Source: a virus. Taken from it: DNA of 36,256 bases. A program made the translations under genes and the position numbers. Shown here in pieces: positions 128-34,109 of the stretch; position 1 is the first letter of the stretch; each line of letters begins with the position of its first letter. Where the stretch lies: IMG/VR virus record IMGVR_UViG_3300022748_000029, positions 1 through 36,256 of that record, one strand, 5' to 3'. The notes beneath the pieces are model-generated. The model was not told where the DNA came from and made no database searches. It saw nothing but the letters and a program-made list of their open reading frames with translations.

Positions 128-1340
128 TGACGCAGGAGGCTTTGGTCTGACGGGTACGGACAATGTGATTTCGTGTGGGTCGTTTACGACTGATGGCTTT
201 GGAATTGCAACAGTAAACCTTGGCTATGAGCCTCAATGGTTGCTATATAAAGATATTGGCTCTGGTGGATATGATTGGCAAATTATTGACAATATGCGTG
301 GCTTTACAACAAGCACCGCAGACAAATTGCTTCAGCCAAATACGTCTGCCGCTGAAAGTTCAAACAATATCGTAGGCCCAACAGCGACAGGCTTTCATTT
401 TGATTTGCGTCCTGGAACCTACATTTACATCGCCATCCGTCGTGGCCCGATGAAAGTGCCTACTGTGGGGACGAGTGTTTATAACGCGTATGCTGCATCT
501 GATGCAACCCTTCAAAATGTAGGATTTCCTGTCGATGTGTTCTTTGACTGCGTTAGAACCGGAGTGGCTTGGAACTTCCTTGCTGGATCAAGACTTATCG
601 GAACGACAAATCAGCTTATAACATCAAGCACAGGTGCTGAAACAACCGTATACGGCCCGAGTGGTGGGTATGACAAACAAAATAGTTTTGCTCCTTCTGT
701 TGGTGGTAGCGCAAATAATCTATGGTACGCGTTCAAACGCGCCCCAGGCTTCATGGATGTGGTGGCTTATACGGGGACGGGTAGTTACACAACCAAAAAT
801 CATGGTCTAGGCGCAGTTCCAGATCTTGTGATTATTAAACGCAGGAACGGAGTAGGAAACTGGTGGGTGTATAGACCCTCTACCGAAGCGGGTTATATGT
901 ACCTAAACGCCACGAACGCCATCAGTAATGTAGGAGGAGGTGGCAATTATTGGCCTGCAACTAACACTACTATAACAGCGTATCCAGATACTTCAGGCGA
1001 AACCTACATCGCCTACCTCTTTGCCTCCCTACCGGGAATCAGCAAAGTTGGAAGCTACACCGGGAATGGTTCAAGCCAGACAATCAACTGCGGATTCTCA
1101 AGCGGTGCAAGGTTTATTCTAATCAAGCGCACTGATTCAACTGGTGATTGGTATGTTTGGGATACAGCACGAGGTATTGTTGCTGCAAATGATCCTCATT
1201 TATCTTTAAACACGTCTGCTGCCGAAGTAACAACTGATGATAGTGTTGATACAGATTCAACTGGTTTTATTGTTAATCAAGTGGCAGCGACAAACATCAA
1301 CGTGACATCAGCAACCTATATTTACTTGGCAATAGCATAG
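3..1340 (+). CDS. Tail appendage protein with DUF7483-like repeats, 3' part (5' end cut by window edge)
   Basis: The frame is open from the window edge (first full codon at position 3), so the GTG at 165 is internal and not a start. The protein is built of repeated modules. Each opens with a TGNG or TGTG strand, has a GYEPQWLL or IKR core, a nucleotide-poor T/S/N-rich middle, and closes with YVAYLFA, YIAIRRGP or YLAIA. This pattern is known from receptor-facing phage tail proteins (DUF7483 family). The same modules make up the partial gene at 34849-36256, and positions 1-127 match part of that gene exactly and in frame, so the two are probably one gene. It ends 8 bases before a tail-fibre assembly chaperone gene, the usual order for a distal tail fibre. 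A role in host recognition is inferred from repeats and position; no enzymatic motif is visible. Confidence 0.75.
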   Translation, partial: YQGVTSYNTYFTSTYFDAYRVISAAGDRNTSGATYVAYLFAHDAGGFGLTGTDNVISCGSFTTDGFGIATVNLGYEPQWLLYKDIGSGGYDWQIIDNMRGFTTSTADKLLQPNTSAAESSNNIVGPTATGFHFDLRPGTYIYIAIRRGPMKVPTVGTSVYNAYAASDATLQNVGFPVDVFFDCVRTGVAWNFLAGSRLIGTTNQLITSSTGAETTVYGPSGGYDKQNSFAPSVGGSANNLWYAFKRAPGFMDVVAYTGTGSYTTKNHGLGAVPDLVIIKRRNGVGNWWVYRPSTEAGYMYLNATNAISNVGGGGNYWPATNTTITAYPDTSGETYIAYLFASLPGISKVGSYTGNGSSQTINCGFSSGARFILIKRTDSTGDWYVWDTARGIVAANDPHLSLNTSAAEVTTDDSVDTDSTGFIVNQVAATNINVTSATYIYLAIA

Positions 1341-1348
1341 GAACAATC

Positions 1349-1834
1349 ATGCAAATACGAATCAGAGAAACAGGGGCAGTAATGTACGAAAATGAATTTC
1401 GCACATTATTTCCTAACACCTCGCTACCGCAACAACTATCAGAATCCTTAATCAACGAACTCGGTGCTGATGTTGTTTTTGAAGGCCCACAAGCTACAGG
1501 TGGTACGGTATATCAATACAGTCAATACGCAGGGGTTGAGCAAATTGATGGCAAGTGGTATACCAAATATATTCTAGGCCCAGTATTTACAGACAACGAA
1601 GAATCGACAGCGGCAGAACAAGAAGCTGCTTATAAAGTATTAAAAGATGCTGAGCAAGCAAAGGCTGTCCGTGAGCAACGCAACAAGCTGTTAGCAGATT
1701 CAGACTGGACGCAATTAGCAGATGCACCTGTTGATAGTGCAATATGGACTGCGTATAGACAAGCTTTGCGAGATGTAACAAAGCAGGATGGCTTTCCTTT
1801 TAATATCGTTTGGCCTGAATTATGCCTGATTTAA
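1349..1834 (+). CDS. Phage tail-fibre assembly chaperone (Phage_tail_APC type)
   Basis: 161 aa. The C-terminal third carries the signature of phage tail assembly chaperones: RNKLLADSDWTQLADAP followed by a W-AYRQALRD helix and a final GFPFNIVWP segment. Family knowledge: such proteins help trimerise or attach distal fibres and are encoded directly after the fibre gene, as here, 8 bases downstream of the repeat-built tail gene. The N-terminal half (a Q-I-D-G-K-W-Y turn region) is less conserved and probably partner-specific. The gene overlaps the next reading frame by 13 bases, suggesting coupled translation into the lysis cassette. The helix at residues 85-112 is rich in Ala, Glu and Lys and could form a coiled coil. 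Confidence 0.8.
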   Translation: MQIRIRETGAVMYENEFRTLFPNTSLPQQLSESLINELGADVVFEGPQATGGTVYQYSQYAGVEQIDGKWYTKYILGPVFTDNEESTAAEQEAAYKVLKDAEQAKAVREQRNKLLADSDWTQLADAPVDSAIWTAYRQALRDVTKQDGFPFNIVWPELCLI

Positions 1835-21165: not shown

Positions 21166-22095
21166 ATGGAAAATGAAGAAATACTAGACGACTCTAGTGT
21201 TGCTGAAGAACAGCCAAGCGACACAAGGGATATTGTTGAAAAGGCAATGACTGAGCATGAAACTGCTCAAGAAGAAGTAAGCAATCCTGTACAGCCTGAA
21301 CCTGTACAAGATGAGCAGCCTAAGCGTGACCCGTGGAAATCTTGGAAGAAAGAAGCGGCCGAGGAAATGTCAAAGCTGCCTGATAATGTTCAAAAATACA
21401 TTATTGAGCGACAAGACCAGTTTCACAAAGGTTTAGAGCAATATAAAGAAGCGGCTAATTATGCTAAGACTATAGATAAGTCAATCGCTCCTTACAAAGA
21501 ATACCTAAGCCAATTAGGTGTAACGCCTGAAGTCGCGTTTCCTAATTTGCTGAAAACCGAACGCACATTGCGAATCGGTAGCCCACAAGAAAAAGTGGAG
21601 ATGTTTCAAAAGCTGGCGCATGATTACGGAATCGACCTTGGGGCATTAGCCAATATCCCATACGATGCAAATCTTGCACAGTTGAAAGCCCAAAAGGAAT
21701 GGCTAGAAAGCCAGCTCCAAGCCTCACAAGACTTTAAACAAAGCCATGAGGATGCCCAATTACAATCTGTTTTAGATGATTTTGGGTCACAGCACGAGTT
21801 TTTTGATGATGTACGTTTGCAGATGGCAGATTTGCTCGACAGCGGCCTTGCAACAGACTTATCAGACGCTTATGCCAAAGCTATTCGATTAAATGATGAT
21901 GTTTTTGCTAAAGCACAAGCCAAACAGCAAGCCAACAGCAAAACAGCACAATTATCGAAAGCAAATCAAGCTGCACAAGCAGCCAAACAAGCAGCAGTTC
22001 AAGTGAAAGGTTCACCTGTTGGCGTAAAAAACCAAGCAGCGCCTAAATCAACTGAAGATGCTGTGCGTATGGCTTTTCTGGCGCACGGACTTTAA
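21166..22095 (+). CDS. Capsid scaffold protein
   Basis: 309 aa. Acidic, low-complexity N-terminus (EEILDDSSVAEEQPSDTRDI), a long helical middle with Gln/Lys/Ala (KGLEQYKEAANYAKTI), and a basic, Ala/Gln-rich C-terminus (AKAQAKQQANSKTAQLSKAN) that would contact the coat. This is the composition of phage scaffolding proteins, which nucleate procapsid assembly and exit before maturation. It lies directly before the capsid gene except for an inserted endonuclease gene on the other strand, whose stop codon overlaps its own in a TTAA. Confidence 0.8.
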   Translation: MENEEILDDSSVAEEQPSDTRDIVEKAMTEHETAQEEVSNPVQPEPVQDEQPKRDPWKSWKKEAAEEMSKLPDNVQKYIIERQDQFHKGLEQYKEAANYAKTIDKSIAPYKEYLSQLGVTPEVAFPNLLKTERTLRIGSPQEKVEMFQKLAHDYGIDLGALANIPYDANLAQLKAQKEWLESQLQASQDFKQSHEDAQLQSVLDDFGSQHEFFDDVRLQMADLLDSGLATDLSDAYAKAIRLNDDVFAKAQAKQQANSKTAQLSKANQAAQAAKQAAVQVKGSPVGVKNQAAPKSTEDAVRMAFLAHGL

Positions 22096-22709
22096 GTTGT
22101 AAGGGCTTTTATTGGGTCCCAATTATAGGTATAGATTCTAGCTCTAATGGTGCGGTGATTTAAATTTAATTCTCTGCACCAATCAGAAACTGATTGAGTC
22201 TTGCCATTCATTGTGATTTGTTTAACATTTTTTCTGTTGTTGGCTTGTTGAAAAACATCAGCCCAACGACAATTTGAAGGTTCATAATTGCCAGAGCTAT
22301 TAATTCTGTCAATTGTATAGTTGGGTGGGCATTTGCCCATATCAGCTAAAAAATTTTCAAAACTAGATAGCCATCTGTCGCAAACGGTTATTCCTAATGC
22401 GCCATATCGCTTATAATCTGGTTTAGAAGGTAAATAGCAACGGGTTTTCATGTTGTGCCAAATTGAATATTCTCGCGACCGAGCATTATGTTTAGCATGA
22501 CCATGTTTTAAATTAAGTTTTGCCATAAATTCAGATTTTGAACAACCGCATGACTTAATTAAACCTTTGCGAAGTTCATACCCAGGCACTTGTGTTGTTT
22601 TTCCGCATGAACAGCTACACAACCAACGTGCTTGCCCCGTTGCCGGAACGCGGGATAGAACTGTTAGCTTGCCAAAAACTTGGCCTGTAATATCTATGAG
22701 TGTAGGCAT
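22092..22709 (-). CDS. Free-standing HNH homing endonuclease (AP2/HNH phage type)
   Basis: 205 aa. Layout: N-terminal Cys-rich zinc ribbons (CSCSCGKTTQ, SCGC), then GHAKHNARSREYSIWHNMKT, the nuclease core YGALGITVCDRW and TIDRINSSGNYEPSNCRWAD typical of this phage nuclease group, and a C-terminal NUMOD-like DNA-binding segment (VSDWCRELNLNHRTIRARI). Such enzymes cut related phage genomes lacking the gene and spread by repair. It sits between scaffold and capsid genes in reverse orientation, the only minus-strand gene in the rightward arc. No Shine-Dalgarno is visible and a hairpin lies 8 bases upstream, so expression is probably low. Confidence 0.85.
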   Translation of the reverse strand: MPTLIDITGQVFGKLTVLSRVPATGQARWLCSCSCGKTTQVPGYELRKGLIKSCGCSKSEFMAKLNLKHGHAKHNARSREYSIWHNMKTRCYLPSKPDYKRYGALGITVCDRWLSSFENFLADMGKCPPNYTIDRINSSGNYEPSNCRWADVFQQANNRKNVKQITMNGKTQSVSDWCRELNLNHRTIRARIYTYNWDPIKALTT

Positions 22710-24881: not shown

Positions 24882-25790
24882 ATGGCAACCTTACTTCAAA
24901 ATGTTCAAAATGTTTGTTTAGAATTAGGGTTGCCGTCACCCAATGCGGTGGCAACATCTACTGACCCGCAAATACTGCAAATGCAGGCGCTTTTGAATCG
25001 CGCTGGTGACATATTATCAACCGAACGCGACTGGCAAGTATTAGCTTCTGAGTATCGCTTTGAAACGGTTTATTATACCTACACAGGCGATGTAACAAAC
25101 GGATCAACAACCATCACCAATTTAAGCTCTGTAGTCGGTTTAAGCACCGATTTCATGGCTACTGGCACTGGCATTCAGCAAGACTCGTTTTTAACGTCTG
25201 TGGGCGTTTCTAGTGCCGAGATGTCTATACCATCCACGCAAACAGCCACAGGCATAACGATTACATTTGGCCAAGCTAAATACTCAATGCCGTCTGACTA
25301 TGCTCGTATTGTTAATAAAACCCAATACAACAAGTCTAACCGTTGGTCAATTATCGGCCCTAAAGATGCTCAGGAATGGCAATGGCTTAAGGCATCGTAT
25401 GTAACCACTGGCCCACGGATGCGTTTTCGTATCATGGGTGATAAATTTACTTTATGGCCTATGCCTTCCAGTACGTTGGTCATGGGTTTTGAATATGTTT
25501 CCAATGCGTGGGTAGTTGGCGCTGATGGCACATTAAAAACCAGCGCCACAAACGATTCAGATACGTTTAGATTCCCTGACAGACTGTTGGTATTAGGCAC
25601 AAAGCTTAAGTTATTCGAAATTAAAGGATTTGATACGACAGCATTGGTTCAAGATTACACCAGAGAGCTGGAAAAGTGGAAGGCATCCGAATCCGGTGCT
25701 GATACGTTGTCGCTCGCACCACGCTATCCAAATCTGCTTCTAACTCAGAACAATATCCCGGACACCGGATACGGAAACGCAACATCTTAA
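24882..25790 (+). CDS. SU10-type head-tail adaptor protein
   Basis: 302 aa. The N-terminus VQNVCLELGLPSPNAVATST then LLNRAGDILSTERDWQVLAS is the helical bundle of the SU10-type adaptor that docks under the portal. The middle has Thr/Ser-rich strands and YSMPSDYARIVNKTQYN, the C-terminal half ends in DRLLVLGTKLKLFEIKGFDT, all as in this family. It joins portal and short tail. The gene is followed by the ADP-ribosyltransferase-like gene after 35 bases. Confidence 0.8.
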   Translation: MATLLQNVQNVCLELGLPSPNAVATSTDPQILQMQALLNRAGDILSTERDWQVLASEYRFETVYYTYTGDVTNGSTTITNLSSVVGLSTDFMATGTGIQQDSFLTSVGVSSAEMSIPSTQTATGITITFGQAKYSMPSDYARIVNKTQYNKSNRWSIIGPKDAQEWQWLKASYVTTGPRMRFRIMGDKFTLWPMPSSTLVMGFEYVSNAWVVGADGTLKTSATNDSDTFRFPDRLLVLGTKLKLFEIKGFDTTALVQDYTRELEKWKASESGADTLSLAPRYPNLLLTQNNIPDTGYGNATS

Positions 25791-25825
25791 GGTTAGGGTA
25801 TTCAGAAACCTATTGGAGTTAATTA

Positions 25826-26938
25826 GTGGACATTAGCAGACTGGCAGACAAGTTACGTTCTCAAAACTTTGGTGCAAATGACAGCACAATTTTAAGTGCA
25901 ATCAATCATCCTTTGACAGCGGCTCAAAAAGGCGCAGATTGGTTCGCTGGTCAAGTCAATCGAGCGGCCAATATTCCTGAGCAATACGACAATCCAAATC
26001 CATTAGCAGGTTATACGCCTGAACAACAAGTTGGTGGTGCTTTGAATCTTGCTGGATTAGCAATGACTGGGCCAGCTCCATTTGGCCCAAAAGGTTCTGG
26101 TGGTACGTTGGGAGCGATTCCTGTTTCACATGGGTCGCCTCATGGCCCATTTAAAGAATTCGATTTATCAGAATTAGGAACTGGCGCTGGCGCTCAAGCG
26201 TATGGGCATGGCATATATTTTGGCGAGGGGTACAATTCGCCTGTTGCGATGAGATATGCTCCAAGAAATGAAAAGCTAGAAAATAAATTGCAAGATTTGT
26301 ACGACATTGCAGAAAAACGCAACCAATATCCATCTATGGAGGTTTATGAGCAATATATGCTAAATAAAGCGCCTGAAGATGTTGAAAAATATTTAGCGGA
26401 AGTTTTGCCTGATTATTCCAAATCAGAACAAATGGCAATGAAACAAGCCCATGAATTGGCTAAAAAAGCATATCAAGGTCAAAAAGGTTCTTACTTATAC
26501 AATGCTGACTTGAAATGGACAGACCCAGCAAAAGAAGCTGAAATGCCTATGTCAGAGGAACATTTTTTGCATTGGGATAAACCTTTGCATGAACAATCTG
26601 ATTATGTAAAAAAAGCTTTATATTCGATGCCATTGATAACGGATAATTTAACTGCAAAATTGTTAAATGGTGAACAAGGCTCAGATATTTATAATGCTTT
26701 AATAAATGCGACAGAGCTTGGTAAATTACCAAAAACTAGTGAACAATTTGGCGTTAAAGGTTCGGCAGAAACAGCTTCTAACTATTTAAACTCAATTGGA
26801 ATACCTGGCATTAGATATTTTGATCCAGAACACGGAAGCGGAAAAAGCTTGCAGAATTTTGTAACTTTTAATCCTAAAACAGCCGATATTTTGTCTATAA
26901 ATAGCAAAAAAATAGCCAACAAACTTAGAGGCCAATAA
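25826..26938 (+). CDS. ADP-ribosyltransferase-like protein (ART-PolyVal type) in the tail operon
   Basis: 370 aa from GTG 25826 with TTGGAG seven bases upstream. Residues 1-95 resemble N-termini of phage virion proteins (LNLAGLAMTGPAPFGPKGSG). From about 98: SHGSPHGPFKEFDLSELGTG (H102-G-S motif), then AGAQAYGHGIYFGEGY with Y126 and the Y131-F-x-E pattern, and near the C-terminus GIPGIRYFD and NFVTFNPKTADILSIN. These are the successive signatures of ADP-ribosyltransferases found in phage polyvalent proteins, which transfer ADP-ribose from NAD+ to host proteins. The third catalytic acid is not obvious. Its place between adaptor and nozzle genes suggests packaging in, or ejection from, the virion like T4 Alt; this is inferred. 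Confidence 0.75.
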   Translation: MDISRLADKLRSQNFGANDSTILSAINHPLTAAQKGADWFAGQVNRAANIPEQYDNPNPLAGYTPEQQVGGALNLAGLAMTGPAPFGPKGSGGTLGAIPVSHGSPHGPFKEFDLSELGTGAGAQAYGHGIYFGEGYNSPVAMRYAPRNEKLENKLQDLYDIAEKRNQYPSMEVYEQYMLNKAPEDVEKYLAEVLPDYSKSEQMAMKQAHELAKKAYQGQKGSYLYNADLKWTDPAKEAEMPMSEEHFLHWDKPLHEQSDYVKKALYSMPLITDNLTAKLLNGEQGSDIYNALINATELGKLPKTSEQFGVKGSAETASNYLNSIGIPGIRYFDPEHGSGKSLQNFVTFNPKTADILSINSKKIANKLRGQ

Positions 26939-28564
26939 ATGCTCAGACCAAAACGCCAATCATCATCAACCATTACGGTAACAGCACCTATTGGCGGCTG
27001 GAACGCTGTTACACAATTGGCGGCTATGTCACCTAATGAAGCGGTGATTATAGACAATTGGTTTTGCTTGCCGACTGAGTTGCAGGTTCGCAAAGGTTAT
27101 ACGGAATGGGCTACAGGCTATACAGGTAACATTCAATCATTTATCAATTATTCTCCAGCAAGCGGAACAATCAAGTTTTTTGCGGCTGCCGACAACAATG
27201 GCGATTGTGCGCTGTACGACGTATCTTCGCAAAATATCAGCGTCACCAACTTGGTAACAGAATCCGGTGATTTCATTACCACCGAGGCTGGCGTTCTTTT
27301 AGATACAAACAAAGCGGCTGTTGTTTACGGATTAACCAGTGCTAAGTTTAGATTTGCACAGTTTGCAAACAGCGGTGGTCATTTCACAATTGCCATCAAT
27401 GACACCGATCCATTATTGCTTTATGACGGTACAACTTGGAATTCAGTCACTAGCACAAGTTCTCCTTATGCGATAACAGGTGTTGATACATCCGCATTAA
27501 ATGATGTTATTTTGCATAAACGCAGAGTTTGGTTTGCTGAGCAAGACACTTTAAATGGCTGGTATCTTGATACCGATGCTGTGGCTGGAACAGCGCACAA
27601 GTTTGATTTTGGCCCGTTATTTTCTCAAGGCGGCTCAATTGCTAAATTAACCACTTGGACACTTGACGCTGGCTGGGGGATGGATGATTACTTAGTCGTC
27701 TTAACCACGAAAGGCGAGGTTGCTGTTTATAAAGGTGTGAATCCTGCCGACCCTGCCGACTGGTCATTGCAAGGTGTTTATTATATCGGTTCGCCTGTTG
27801 GGTTCTTCCCGACTTGCAAATACGGTGGCGATGCCTTGTTATTAAACAAAGACGGATTAATTCCTTTGTCGCAATGTTTAATGTCATCTCGGGTATCTAC
27901 TCGAATCTCAATCACCAACAAGATTCAATCAAAAGTTACTCAAGCAACAACTGATTATGCCGGCAATTATGGTTGGCAAGTAATTTTGTTTCCACCGCAA
28001 AATATGTTGATGATTAACGTACCAACATCGAATACAACATCAGACCAATATGTGATGAATACTATTAGCGGGGCATGGTCAAGATTTGTTGATGTTAATG
28101 CCACCACATGGACATTTATCAATGAAGAAATGTATTTCGGAAATGCTGGCGCTGTTTATAAGTTCTGGGACGGACAAAACGACAATGGGTCTGTTGTAAC
28201 AACTGATTTGTTGCCAGCTTTTAGTTCGTTTGGAAGTCAGTCGCAAATCAAACGCTGGTCAATGGCTAGAGTATCAATGGGCTATGACATTACATTTTCA
28301 TTTTCATCGCAATTAAGTCTTGATTTTGATTTAGTATCTCAGCCGCCACAACCTTACAATACATTGTCATCAACCGCAGGTGTTTGGGATGTTGGCCATT
28401 GGGATAACGCGCTATATGGCGGGAATATTATCCCATTCGCTCAATGGCAAATGGCTTCAGGGATGGGGCATTATGGTTCTTATAGAATTAGAACATCGAG
28501 CAAAACAAGTGATATTCGATATTATGCAACCGACTATGTTTTGGAAGCGGGTGGAGTTCTTTAA
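26939..28564 (+). CDS. Tail nozzle-like structural protein
   Basis: 541 aa, starting immediately after the previous stop. The N-terminus TVTAPIGGWNAVTQLAAMSP then EAVIIDNWFCLPTELQVRKG is a signature of the beta-propeller or nozzle protein of short tails (T7 gp12- or P22 gp10-like role). The body is beta-rich with many Trp/Gly turns (VWFAEQDTLNGWYLD, then MFYF-like strands EMYFGNAGAVYKFWDG) and repeated SPVG/TTW elements. It would form the tail tube below the adaptor. Followed by a small gene with one-base overlap. Confidence 0.75.
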   Translation: MLRPKRQSSSTITVTAPIGGWNAVTQLAAMSPNEAVIIDNWFCLPTELQVRKGYTEWATGYTGNIQSFINYSPASGTIKFFAAADNNGDCALYDVSSQNISVTNLVTESGDFITTEAGVLLDTNKAAVVYGLTSAKFRFAQFANSGGHFTIAINDTDPLLLYDGTTWNSVTSTSSPYAITGVDTSALNDVILHKRRVWFAEQDTLNGWYLDTDAVAGTAHKFDFGPLFSQGGSIAKLTTWTLDAGWGMDDYLVVLTTKGEVAVYKGVNPADPADWSLQGVYYIGSPVGFFPTCKYGGDALLLNKDGLIPLSQCLMSSRVSTRISITNKIQSKVTQATTDYAGNYGWQVILFPPQNMLMINVPTSNTTSDQYVMNTISGAWSRFVDVNATTWTFINEEMYFGNAGAVYKFWDGQNDNGSVVTTDLLPAFSSFGSQSQIKRWSMARVSMGYDITFSFSSQLSLDFDLVSQPPQPYNTLSSTAGVWDVGHWDNALYGGNIIPFAQWQMASGMGHYGSYRIRTSSKTSDIRYYATDYVLEAGGVL

Positions 28565-29208: not shown

Positions 29209-30903
29209 ATGTGCGACACCGGCCCATCAGCACCACCAGCACCAAATTACGCAGCAGCGGCTAGAGAAACCGCTCAGGGTAACGCAAATGCAGCTCGTAT
29301 TGCCCAGTATGGCAATATGGTCAATCAAGTTACGCCGCAAGGTACTGTCACCTATAACCCGTCAACTCGAGGTTATATGGATGAAAAAGGCAATACAATA
29401 TCAATAGATGCTTATAACGCATTAAAAAATAAAAAAGGTTATTCGCCTTTAGAACAGTGGACACAATCGGTCACTTTATCGCCTGACCAACAAGCTTTAT
29501 ACGACCAATCTGTTGCAATGAACAAAGAGCTGGGCAATATTGCTCAGTCTGGTTTGGCGTATGTTAAAGATGCAATGGGCAATCCAATCAAGCCCAAATT
29601 TGATGTTGTTGGCAATGCTCCTACTACATTTAGTCAAATGACTTCTAATGTTGACAGGCCTGATTTACAGACAGAAGTTGGCGATGCTGGAAGAATTCAA
29701 CGGTCAGTAAATGATTACACTGGCGATGTACAACGTCAATCCGGTGCAAATGAACAGGCTAATGCCAATGTTTATCAGACATTAGGCCAATTACAAACAA
29801 GGGTGCAAAATCCTGAGTTATTAGCGCAAGACACCACAAACGCTTTGTACAAAGCGAACACACAGTATTTAGACCCGCAATTTGAGCAGGCACAATCTAA
29901 GCTAGAAAATCAATTGGCGAATCAAGGTATAACCAGAGGTTCTGAGGCATATAACAATGCCATGCAAAACTTTGGTAATCAAAAGCAACAAGCTTATGAA
30001 TCTGCAAGAAATCAAGCAATAGCGGGTGGTACACAAGCTGCACAAGGCATGTTTGGTATGAATCTTCAGGGCGGTCAATTTGCTAATCAAGCACTTGGTC
30101 AACAATTTGGCCAATCTGTTACACAACAAGAATTGGCTAATGCTGCGGCTAATCAAAACAATCAATTGGCGCTGGCCAATCAGCAAGCCTACAACCAAGC
30201 GATTGCTCAGCAATATGGTCAAGGATTGGGCGCTGCTAATTTTGCTAATCAAGCACAGCAACAACAATACGACCAGTTGCTTAATAATGCCAATTTCAGA
30301 AATGCTGCACTACAAGGCATGTTCGGTATGGGCATGCAAAACGCTGCTCTTAACAATCAAGTTCAAAACCAAGCATTTGCACAAGGTTTATCAAACGCTC
30401 AATTGCAAAATGCGGCTTCTCAGCAAGATATTTCGCAACAACAAACCTTACAGCAAGCGCCCATCAATATGCTTAATGCCGTTAGAACTGGTCAGCAATT
30501 ACAGGCAGCACAAATACCGCAAGTCGGTGTTTCTCAACCGGGTCAATTGGCTAACTGGCAAGGGGCTGACATGTTAGGCGCGGCACAAGCTCAAGGACAA
30601 TATAACCAAGGTATTTATAACGCACAATCTGCGGCTGATGCACAAAAGGTAAGTGCGGGAATTGGGGCTATTGGTTCAATTGGCGGTGGTTTTGCTGCGA
30701 AGTCAGACATTCGACTCAAGAAAAACATTGTGCGATTGGGTACTCATAAAACATTGGGCATCGGCCTTTATAAGTGGGATTATATCTGGGATTATCCTGG
30801 TTACGGTGTCATGGCTCAAGAACTTGAACAAGTTATGCCTGAAGCTGTGTTTACGATGCCTGATGGCTATAAAGCTGTTAATTACTCAATGCTGGGGGCG
30901 TAA
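29209..30903 (+). CDS. Gln/Ala/Asn-rich virion protein with C-terminal S74-type chaperone domain
   Basis: 564 aa. The N-terminus (MCDTGPSAPPAPNYAAAARE) and the long Gln/Ala/Asn-rich middle (many QQ, NQ and AN repeats, about residues 150-460) fit an ejection protein. From about 499 to the end is an S74 intramolecular chaperone: SDIRLKKNIVRLG with its conserved Ser, then LYKWDYIWD, GVMAQELEQVMPEAV and a YKAVNYSMLGA finish. Such domains help trimerise fibre-like proteins and cut themselves off. Having one on a Gln-rich internal-type protein is unusual. It directly precedes three more ejection-type genes. Confidence 0.75.
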   Translation: MCDTGPSAPPAPNYAAAARETAQGNANAARIAQYGNMVNQVTPQGTVTYNPSTRGYMDEKGNTISIDAYNALKNKKGYSPLEQWTQSVTLSPDQQALYDQSVAMNKELGNIAQSGLAYVKDAMGNPIKPKFDVVGNAPTTFSQMTSNVDRPDLQTEVGDAGRIQRSVNDYTGDVQRQSGANEQANANVYQTLGQLQTRVQNPELLAQDTTNALYKANTQYLDPQFEQAQSKLENQLANQGITRGSEAYNNAMQNFGNQKQQAYESARNQAIAGGTQAAQGMFGMNLQGGQFANQALGQQFGQSVTQQELANAAANQNNQLALANQQAYNQAIAQQYGQGLGAANFANQAQQQQYDQLLNNANFRNAALQGMFGMGMQNAALNNQVQNQAFAQGLSNAQLQNAASQQDISQQQTLQQAPINMLNAVRTGQQLQAAQIPQVGVSQPGQLANWQGADMLGAAQAQGQYNQGIYNAQSAADAQKVSAGIGAIGSIGGGFAAKSDIRLKKNIVRLGTHKTLGIGLYKWDYIWDYPGYGVMAQELEQVMPEAVFTMPDGYKAVNYSMLGA

Positions 30904-32498: not shown

Positions 32499-34109
32499 AT
32501 GCCTAGTTTTGAAATTACAGCACCAGACGGAAGAAAATATGCAATTGATGCACCTGAAGGCGCTACGCAGGAACAGGCGTTAGAGCATTTTAAGGCTAAT
32601 TGGAAGCCAGAAACCGATACGTCTGCATTAAAAAGATTTGGCCAAGGATTATTAGAGCCAGTAGAAGGTCTTGGACAAATAGCGGCTCAAGGCATTGCTG
32701 CGGCTGCTCCAAATACGGAAGCTGGCAGATTTGCTCAACAACATTTGGAATTTGGCAAACAACAAAGACTAGCGCAAGAAGCTGCCAATCAAGCCGCTAA
32801 TGTAGGAACTAATTATGCAGGAATGGCGGGCAATGTATTAAGCCCAGTTAATTTAATGACTGGTGCTGCAATGAAAGGCGCTCCATTGATTTCTCAAGGG
32901 GTGCGTGGCGGCGCTGTTAGCGGCCTGTTATCACCAAATAATGCAGAGGATAATTTTGCTGAAGAAAAAGCCAAACAAATTGGCATGGGCGCTTTAACTG
33001 GAGCAGCAACTGGATTAGGCTCTGATCTTGCAACCGGATTTATTAAAGGCGCTACACCTTCAAAATATGTGGAATTATTGCGAAAAGAAGGAGTTACGCC
33101 AACAGCTGGACAAATATTAGGCGGTGCATGGCAACGAGCTGAAAATAAATTAGAAAGCATTCCTATTCTTGGTGATTTTATTACTAAAGGACATAAAGAA
33201 GGATACGAAGAATACAACAAAGCTATTTTAAATAGAGCATTAAAGCCAATAGGCGAAACCACAGATAAAGTGGGTCGTGAAGGTGTTCAAGAAGTAGAAA
33301 GCAAGTTGAACCAATATTATGACAAAATATTGCCAGAACTTGGATTTTTACCTGACGATGAATTTGTTCAAAAAATGTCAACTATTAAACAAATGGTTGG
33401 TCAATTGCCTAGAAACGAACAAAAGTCATACGCCAATATAATGCAACGTATTGAAAGCCAAGCAAGTCCAAATGGTGGAATGGTTGGCGAAACATTTAAA
33501 GAAGTTGAATCGCTTTTAAATACTGAGGCAAAAAGATTTGGAAAATCTACTGATGCTTATCAACAAAGCCTTGGCGATGCGTTAAGCGAAACTTTAAAAA
33601 CATATCGAGAAGTTTTGCCCAGATCAAATCCTAATTATGCCGATGAATTAACAAAAGCTAATACAGGGTGGGCAAATTATGCTCGTATTCGTGATGCAGC
33701 CAATAGAACATCGGCAGGCGCTAATGAAGGCATATTTTCACCAGCACAATTAGCTCAAGCAGTGAGATCGCAAGACAAAACAGTTGGCAAAGGGGCGTCC
33801 GCTAAAGGTAAAGCTTTGATGCAAGATATTGCTGAAGCCGGTACAAATGTATTATCGCCAAAATATCCAGATTCGGGAACAGCTGGTCGAGCTGCTTTAG
33901 ATTTGGCAGTGGGCGGCGCAGGCTATGCGTTTAATCCTTTAATCCCTGCTGGACTTGCCGCAGCAGGATTGCCATTTGTTGGCGCTGGTAGAAAAGCTAC
34001 TGGAAATCTGTTATTAAACAGACCTGAAGAAGCAAGAAAACTTGCTGATATTTTAAGACAAGGCGCAGCGTATGGTGTTACTGCATCGCCTTACATGGTT
34101 AATCAATAG
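32499..34109 (+). CDS. Large ejection-type virion protein
   Basis: 536 aa. The N-terminus SFEITAPDGRKYAIDAPEGA followed by TQEQALEHFKANW is a small module repeatedly found at the start of podovirus ejection or internal proteins. The middle is helical with glycine-rich amphipathic stretches (GGAVSGLLSP; AAKGAPL-type) that could insert into membranes, then charged helices (EGVQEVESKLNQYYDKILPE; EFVQKMSTIKQMVGQLPRNE). The C-terminus has RAALDLAVGGAGYAFNP and a likely membrane-active tail. No muralytic domain recognised. Likely one of the proteins ejected before DNA. Confidence 0.6.
   Translation: MPSFEITAPDGRKYAIDAPEGATQEQALEHFKANWKPETDTSALKRFGQGLLEPVEGLGQIAAQGIAAAAPNTEAGRFAQQHLEFGKQQRLAQEAANQAANVGTNYAGMAGNVLSPVNLMTGAAMKGAPLISQGVRGGAVSGLLSPNNAEDNFAEEKAKQIGMGALTGAATGLGSDLATGFIKGATPSKYVELLRKEGVTPTAGQILGGAWQRAENKLESIPILGDFITKGHKEGYEEYNKAILNRALKPIGETTDKVGREGVQEVESKLNQYYDKILPELGFLPDDEFVQKMSTIKQMVGQLPRNEQKSYANIMQRIESQASPNGGMVGETFKEVESLLNTEAKRFGKSTDAYQQSLGDALSETLKTYREVLPRSNPNYADELTKANTGWANYARIRDAANRTSAGANEGIFSPAQLAQAVRSQDKTVGKGASAKGKALMQDIAEAGTNVLSPKYPDSGTAGRAALDLAVGGAGYAFNPLIPAGLAAAGLPFVGAGRKATGNLLLNRPEEARKLADILRQGAAYGVTASPYMVNQ

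What the first reader, a model, noticed from the sequence alone, without database searches (positions are those of the whole stretch)
25826..26938. ADP-ribosyltransferase-like gene embedded among tail genes: candidate virion-delivered effector
The protein carries successive ART motifs (HGS at 102-104, the GTGAGAQAYGHGIYFGEG block, C-terminal GIRYFD and NFVTF) typical of ADP-ribosyltransferases in phage polyvalent proteins. It is fused to an N-terminus resembling virion proteins and encoded between adaptor and nozzle genes. Expressed late, it makes sense as a protein packaged or ejected with DNA to modify host targets at the start of the next infection, similar in logic to T4 Alt but in a small podovirus-like genome without its own RNA polymerase. 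The third catalytic acid is unclear, so a novel variant is possible.
Basis: partly seen in the sequence, partly recalled or inferred. Interest (0 to 1): 0.78.

Follow-up and report, generated by a model that had tools for sequence, protein, structure and literature searches.

The report
Swappable virion-cargo ADP-ribosyltransferase in a podovirus
A small phage carries, in a gene slot whose contents are swapped between related phages, a protein with the ADP-ribosyltransferase fold that is probably loaded into the virus particle and delivered into the host cell; the fold is well supported, the delivery and the activity are not yet shown.

Summary
The ORF (25826-26938, 370 aa) and its motifs are real. 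A profile of 138 relatives, built without it, recovers it at E=9e-54; H102 and Y131 are kept in 137/139 and 139/139. AlphaFold plus VIA-align place residues ~95-361 on the ART fold (tankyrases, PARP10, diphtheria toxin, RES). It is a divergent relative of Pfam ART-PolyVal: 81/96 relatives hit that family; the window protein does not. The 'unclear third acid' resolves by structural register: N344 sits where PARPs carry the catalytic Glu, and is Asn in 132/136 relatives (H-Y-N).

New here: the adaptor-nozzle slot is a cargo slot in this phage lineage. Of 64 distinct slot sequences, 24 are empty, 19 hold HNH endonucleases, others hold unrelated effector-like proteins (ARTs, a PBECR5 nuclease, a possible peptidase+GNAT). 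Non-HNH cargo share a short N-terminal segment (LAxxLR) that the window ART also has (0/1000 shuffles as similar).

Best reading: a modular, virion-loaded ART effector that works like T4 Alt but is not of its family. The top structural match is a cyanophage A4 pre-ejectosome chain. Virion presence, activity and target are untested; E121A and a lost Ser-Arg may mean altered or lost activity.

The parts
25826..26938 (+). ART-fold cargo gene, 370 aa, GTG start
25815..25818 (+). GGAG, ribosome-binding-like site 7 nt before the GTG
   Evidence: sequence
25826..25873 (+). N-terminal segment MDISRLADKLRSQNFG, shared with other cargo of the same slot
25826..26104 (+). N-terminal helical, low-confidence region (residues 1-93)
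   Evidence: AlphaFold pLDDT about 42-70
26108..26908 (+). ART-fold domain, residues 95-361
26129..26131 (+). His102 (motif I, HGS); register of tankyrase-2 H1031
26186..26188 (+). Ala121, where 138 of 139 aligned sequences have Glu
26216..26218 (+). Tyr131 (motif II, GxGxYF)
   Evidence: 139 of 139
26255..26257 (+). Tyr144, likely nicotinamide-stacking second Tyr
   Evidence: 139 of 139
26264..26485 (+). helical insert between strands 2 and 3 (residues 147-220)
26855..26857 (+). Asn344 at the start of strand 5, register of the PARP catalytic Glu
24882..25790 (+). adaptor gene (SU10_adaptor), upstream border of the cargo slot
26939..28564 (+). nozzle-like tail gene, downstream border of the cargo slot
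   Evidence: position and size

Best explanation
The gene encodes a modular cargo effector. Residues ~95-361 form an ADP-ribosyltransferase-superfamily domain of the ART-PolyVal kind, with a PARP-like His-Tyr-(Tyr) NAD+ site and Asn at the strand-5 catalytic position. The gene sits in an exchangeable cargo slot between adaptor and nozzle genes and is probably transcribed with the tail genes. An N-terminal segment shared with unrelated cargo of the same slot probably recruits it into the assembling particle. It is then ejected with the DNA and mono-ADP-ribosylates (or otherwise uses NAD+ on) a host macromolecule at the start of infection. Shown: ORF, homology, predicted fold, motif residues, slot exchange, shared N-terminus. 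Inferred: late expression, packaging, ejection, activity, host target.
For: Homology: profile without the window, E=8.6e-54; 81/96 relatives hit PF18760; the relative with the best BLAST score (L029) passes that family's cut-off (32.5 vs 31.2 bits). Fold: VIA Z 7.9 diphtheria toxin, 6.9 tankyrase-2, 6.0 PARP10, plus PARP2, PARP13, MbcT, RES, NatT, 6kyf; BFVD E=1.2e-17, several targets named ART-PolyVal-like. Register: model 361 pairs with TNKS2 1155, TNKS1 1308, PARP10 1004, PARP2 575, PARP13 893, which without gaps puts N344 on E1138, E1291, I987, E558, V876, and H102 on TNKS2 H1031 (ranges; catalytic residue numbers from general knowledge). Precedent: top VIA hit is a cyanophage A4 pre-ejectosome chain, Z 9.3; A4L_27 of that phage carries HGT(1426)...GSGTYFSK...TLVIN. 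Context: solo relatives lie next to portal, terminase and scaffold genes. Cargo slot: 24 empty, 19 HNH, other cargo in the rest of 64. Shared N-terminus: 0/1000 shuffles, cargo chosen by their bodies; codons differ synonymously. No ART found elsewhere in 20 relatives without one in the slot.
Against: No virion proteomics and no activity data for any member could be read. Foldseek alone found no PDB match at E<=0.001; VIA Z values of 5-8 are in the range that can be a common arrangement, though the rows are heavily ART. The strand-5 acid is Asn; the window also lost E121 and the Ser-Arg of the loop before strand 5, so activity may be changed or lost. The A4 match spans 468..1604 with only 154 aligned residues, and the family HMM does not detect A4L_27. 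The first 93 residues are poorly predicted. Late expression is assumed from gene order (one search finds promoter-like sites no more often than shuffles).
Confidence: 0.6

Rival explanations
1. ART-fold effector made late and acting in the cell that produces it (for example against superinfecting phages or host NAD+ signalling), not packaged.
For: Slot neighbours are tail genes, so it is made in the producing cell; HNH genes in the same slot show that non-virion genes also sit there.
Against: Shared N-terminus with unrelated cargo and not with the HNH proteins; relatives sit in the head and ejection gene region or inside large polyvalent proteins; ART-like block in an ejectosome protein of A4.
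Confidence: 0.2
2. Catalytically dead or re-purposed ART domain, kept as an NAD+/ADP-ribose or partner-binding module, or decaying.
For: N344 in place of the acid; E121A (1 of 139); Ser-Arg replaced by Glu-His.
Against: N344 is the family rule (132/136), so it is not decay of this copy; H102, Y131, Y144, W250, D251, Q257 and D333 are all kept; PARPs without the Glu (H-Y-I, H-Y-L, H-Y-Y) are listed as mono-transferases in PMC7955679.
Confidence: 0.15
3. Structural neck or tail protein that uses an ART-like fold only as scaffold.
For: Position between adaptor and nozzle genes.
Against: The slot is empty in 24 of 64 relatives, so it is dispensable; the conserved residues include the NAD+ site.
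Confidence: 0.05

Closest known systems
ART-PolyVal (PF18760), ADP-ribosyltransferases of phage polyvalent proteins (PMC5512222)
   Same: His in strand 1, Tyr in strand 2, PARP-like fold, phage late-gene context, solo or inside giant polyvalent proteins; 81/96 relatives hit the family
   Different: Window protein itself scores no hit; strand-5 position is Asn; E121 and Ser-Arg lost; solo protein in a tail cargo slot
Sulfitobacter phage phiGT1 gp5 (QLB38217.1)
   Same: Solo ART of the same family in a podovirus structural cluster, 26% identity
   Different: Lies between a structural-like gene and the scaffold gene; keeps GTGEGAQAYGHG and the Ser-Arg; different N-terminus
Cyanophage A4 pre-ejectosome protein (9k3a chain B; A4L_27)
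   Same: ART-like HGT ... GSGTYF block in a virion-internal ejection protein; best VIA match
   Different: 1717-aa ejectosome protein, not detected by the family HMM; that chain B is A4L_27 is inferred from length and numbering
T4 Alt
   Same: Idea: ART delivered from the virion at the start of infection
   Different: Alt has an R-S-E site (PMC5512222); here H-Y-N; no homology shown

Membership tests
ART superfamily | split-sheet ART fold | tested here: met
   AlphaFold core pLDDT about 90; VIA rows dominated by ART structures; BFVD E=1e-17
ART superfamily | NAD+-site His (strand 1) and Tyr (strand 2) | tested here: met
   H102 137/139, Y131 139/139, register with tankyrase H1031
ART superfamily | transfer or hydrolysis of NAD+ | not testable with these tools
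   needs an assay
ART-PolyVal (PF18760) | score above the Pfam cut-off | tested here: not met
   no hit for the window protein; L029, the relative with the best BLAST score, passes, so kinship is transitive only
ART-PolyVal (PF18760) | Asp in strand 5 (H-Y-D, PMC5512222) | tested here: inconclusive
   PARP catalytic-Glu register is N344; which residue the paper's Asp aligns to could not be settled from the prototype CBX87992
Polyvalent protein | several unrelated domains in one polypeptide | tested here: not met
   one ART domain plus an N-terminal segment
T4 Alt family | R-S-E active site | tested here: not met
   H-Y-N residues
Virion-delivered effector | protein present in virions | not testable with these tools
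   no proteomics held; phiGT1 Table S3 not readable here

The most novel reading that the evidence does not exclude
A small-genome podovirus lineage has a true cargo-loading system: a short N-terminal helix (xxLAxxLRxx) brings otherwise unrelated, exchangeable effector proteins (ARTs, PBECR nuclease, possible peptidase/GNAT, unknowns) into the particle, perhaps by mimicking the N-terminus of an internal ejection protein, much as T4 head proteins use a capsid-targeting sequence.
Probability: 0.35. Interest if true: 0.75.

Novelty: new variant of a known kind. Interest (0 to 1): 0.52.

Why it matters
ARTs in phage virions are widely predicted but rarely shown; this lineage gives a compact, testable case. 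A shared loading tag on swappable cargo would explain how small phages change their early-infection effectors. The near-invariant Asn at the catalytic position, in a family seen in at least 535 uncultivated virus contigs but only a handful of isolates, asks whether these proteins are transferases, NADases or binders.

Tried and rejected
Sequence search against PDB chains with the single protein and with the 96-row profile gave only unrelated chance-like hits, mostly to helical proteins. Foldseek against PDB gave nothing significant; VIA was needed. The idea that the window's own late ORFs share the cargo tag was tested and not supported (best in-window match not above shuffles), leaving only the weak family-level signal for ORF 31304 homologues (23/1000). 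A single ancestral ART in the lineage: the tree does not group window, L203 and L209 (3 changes, 0% of bootstraps with one origin), though it is poorly resolved. Isolate phages with virion proteomics: the family is in only about six of 50,697 phage records, none with readable virion data; supplementary tables could not be read. The cyanophage A4 paper is not in the library. The PHROG labels 'endolysin' (phrog_873) and 'amidase' (phrog_5107) were not taken at face value.

Full report
Observation. The ORF at 25826-26938 is intact: GTG start, GGAG 7 nt upstream, 370 codons, stop abutting the ATG of the next gene. The window is an IMG/VR virus record of 36,256 bases.

Is the ART call more than chance? 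Pfam, PHROGs and PDB sequence searches with the protein alone find nothing of use. Two phage records carry relatives: phiGT1 gp5 and a 1974-aa protein of vir555. A first scan of virus contigs gave eight loci, one of them an identical copy; a profile of eight sequences gave at least 535 relatives in virus contigs and 56 in species genomes. In the 139-sequence alignment the most conserved positions are H102-G-S/T-P, GTGEGAQAYGxGxY131, Y144, Y225, W250-D251, Q257, G328, Y331, D333, a Ser-Arg, N344 and F348. A profile built without the window finds it at E=8.6e-54. Of 96 relatives scanned, 81 match PF18760 ART-PolyVal, 24 DUF3990 and one PARP; L029 passes the PF18760 cut-off.

Fold. AlphaFold gives pLDDT around 90 for most of the core, with strands at 98-104, 130-134, 223-229, 328-332, 343-347 and 353-358. 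Foldseek on PDB is not significant, but VIA-align ranks cyanophage A4 pre-ejectosome (Z 9.3), diphtheria toxin (7.9), tankyrases (up to 6.9), PARP10, PARP13, PARP2, and the ART-like MbcT, RES, NatT and 6kyf (an anti-CRISPR protein). Rows of other folds match only the helical insert 147-220. BFVD matches reach E=1.2e-17, several named ART-PolyVal-like.

Third catalytic position. The VIA rows end at model residue 361 paired with TNKS2 1155, TNKS1 1308, PARP10 1004, PARP2 575 and PARP13 893. Counting back 17 residues without gaps, N344 falls on the catalytic-Glu position in all five (E1138, E1291, I987, E558, V876; numbers from general knowledge), and H102 falls on TNKS2 H1031. N344 is Asn in 132 of 136. 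So the family reads H-Y-N with a second Tyr (Y144). Only ranges are given by the tool, so the register is an inference. PARPs without the Glu are listed as mono-transferases in PMC7955679. The window departs from its family at E121 (Ala; Glu in 138/139) and in the Ser-Arg before strand 5; L203, from a related phage, also has Ala at 121.

Neighbourhood. Upstream is an SU10-type adaptor, downstream a nozzle-like gene. With these two as queries, 72 and 38 loci were fetched. The slot between them varies. Of 64 distinct slot sequences 24 are empty, 19 hold HNH endonucleases, 5 a 131-aa protein, 3 a 110-aa and 2 a 167-aa protein; one holds a 154-aa protein, one the ART of the window. A group shares 158 N-terminal residues followed by different bodies: ART (L203), ART variant (L209), a protein with a ParB-C-named PHROG match (L199), a HEMQH motif plus weak GNAT match (L200), unknown (L210). 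L202 has PBECR5 (E=2e-22) after a related start. No ART was found elsewhere in 20 relatives (that search had no positive control). The three slot ARTs do not group in the tree. The slot is therefore a place of repeated cargo exchange.

Shared N-terminus. The non-HNH cargo begin MDAVRLAQLLRQ, MATLAEMLRQ, MPTLADLLRQ or (M-ATRQV)DISRLAALLR; the window ART begins MDISRLADKLRSQ. L195 and L188 share 16 of 16 residues and then diverge. Distinct N-termini with the pattern: 16 of 110 in or just after the slot, 1 of 328 elsewhere (the pattern was drawn from the same data). In a test with cargo chosen by their bodies, the window's first 16 residues score higher against cargo N-termini than all of 1000 shuffles; against homologues of the internal-protein ORF 31304, 23 of 1000 shuffles do as well. 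Within the window alone no late ORF stands out. Codons in the motif vary synonymously, which points to selection on the peptide. That it is a loading signal is a hypothesis.

Mechanism. Packaging and delivery are inferred from the slot, the shared N-terminus, the head/ejection gene context of solo relatives, and the precedent of an ART-like block in a virion ejectosome protein of cyanophage A4. Iyer and colleagues proposed virion delivery for polyvalent ARTs in general (PMC5512222). What is added here is the exchangeable slot, the common N-terminus and the H-Y-N reading.

Verdict. It is a new variant of a known kind. My estimates: ART fold about 0.97; virion cargo about 0.7; active on a host target about 0.6.

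Noticed in passing
window 22092-22709 (-): HNH-like ORF on the minus strand between the scaffold-like and capsid-like genes.
   Followed up: no
window 29209-30903: Virion/ejection-like protein with a C-terminal Peptidase_S74 chaperone domain.
   Followed up: no
window 32499-34109: Weak SelO match below cut-off (E=0.0045).
   Followed up: no
L203, and window 26186-26188: Same Glu-to-Ala change in the GTGEGAQA block in two ARTs that do not group together in the tree.
   Followed up: partly
L250 (Anabaena phage A-4L), A4L_27, residue 1426 onward: ART-like block in a cyanophage ejectosome protein annotated only as tail protein.
   Followed up: partly
hits H5, H6, H11: The ART family also occurs in archaeal-virus records and in a jumbo-phage gene annotated NUDIX hydrolase.
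   Followed up: no
phrog_873, phrog_5107: PHROG names 'endolysin' and 'amidase' attach to ART relatives and to the nozzle-like protein and are misleading here.
   Followed up: no
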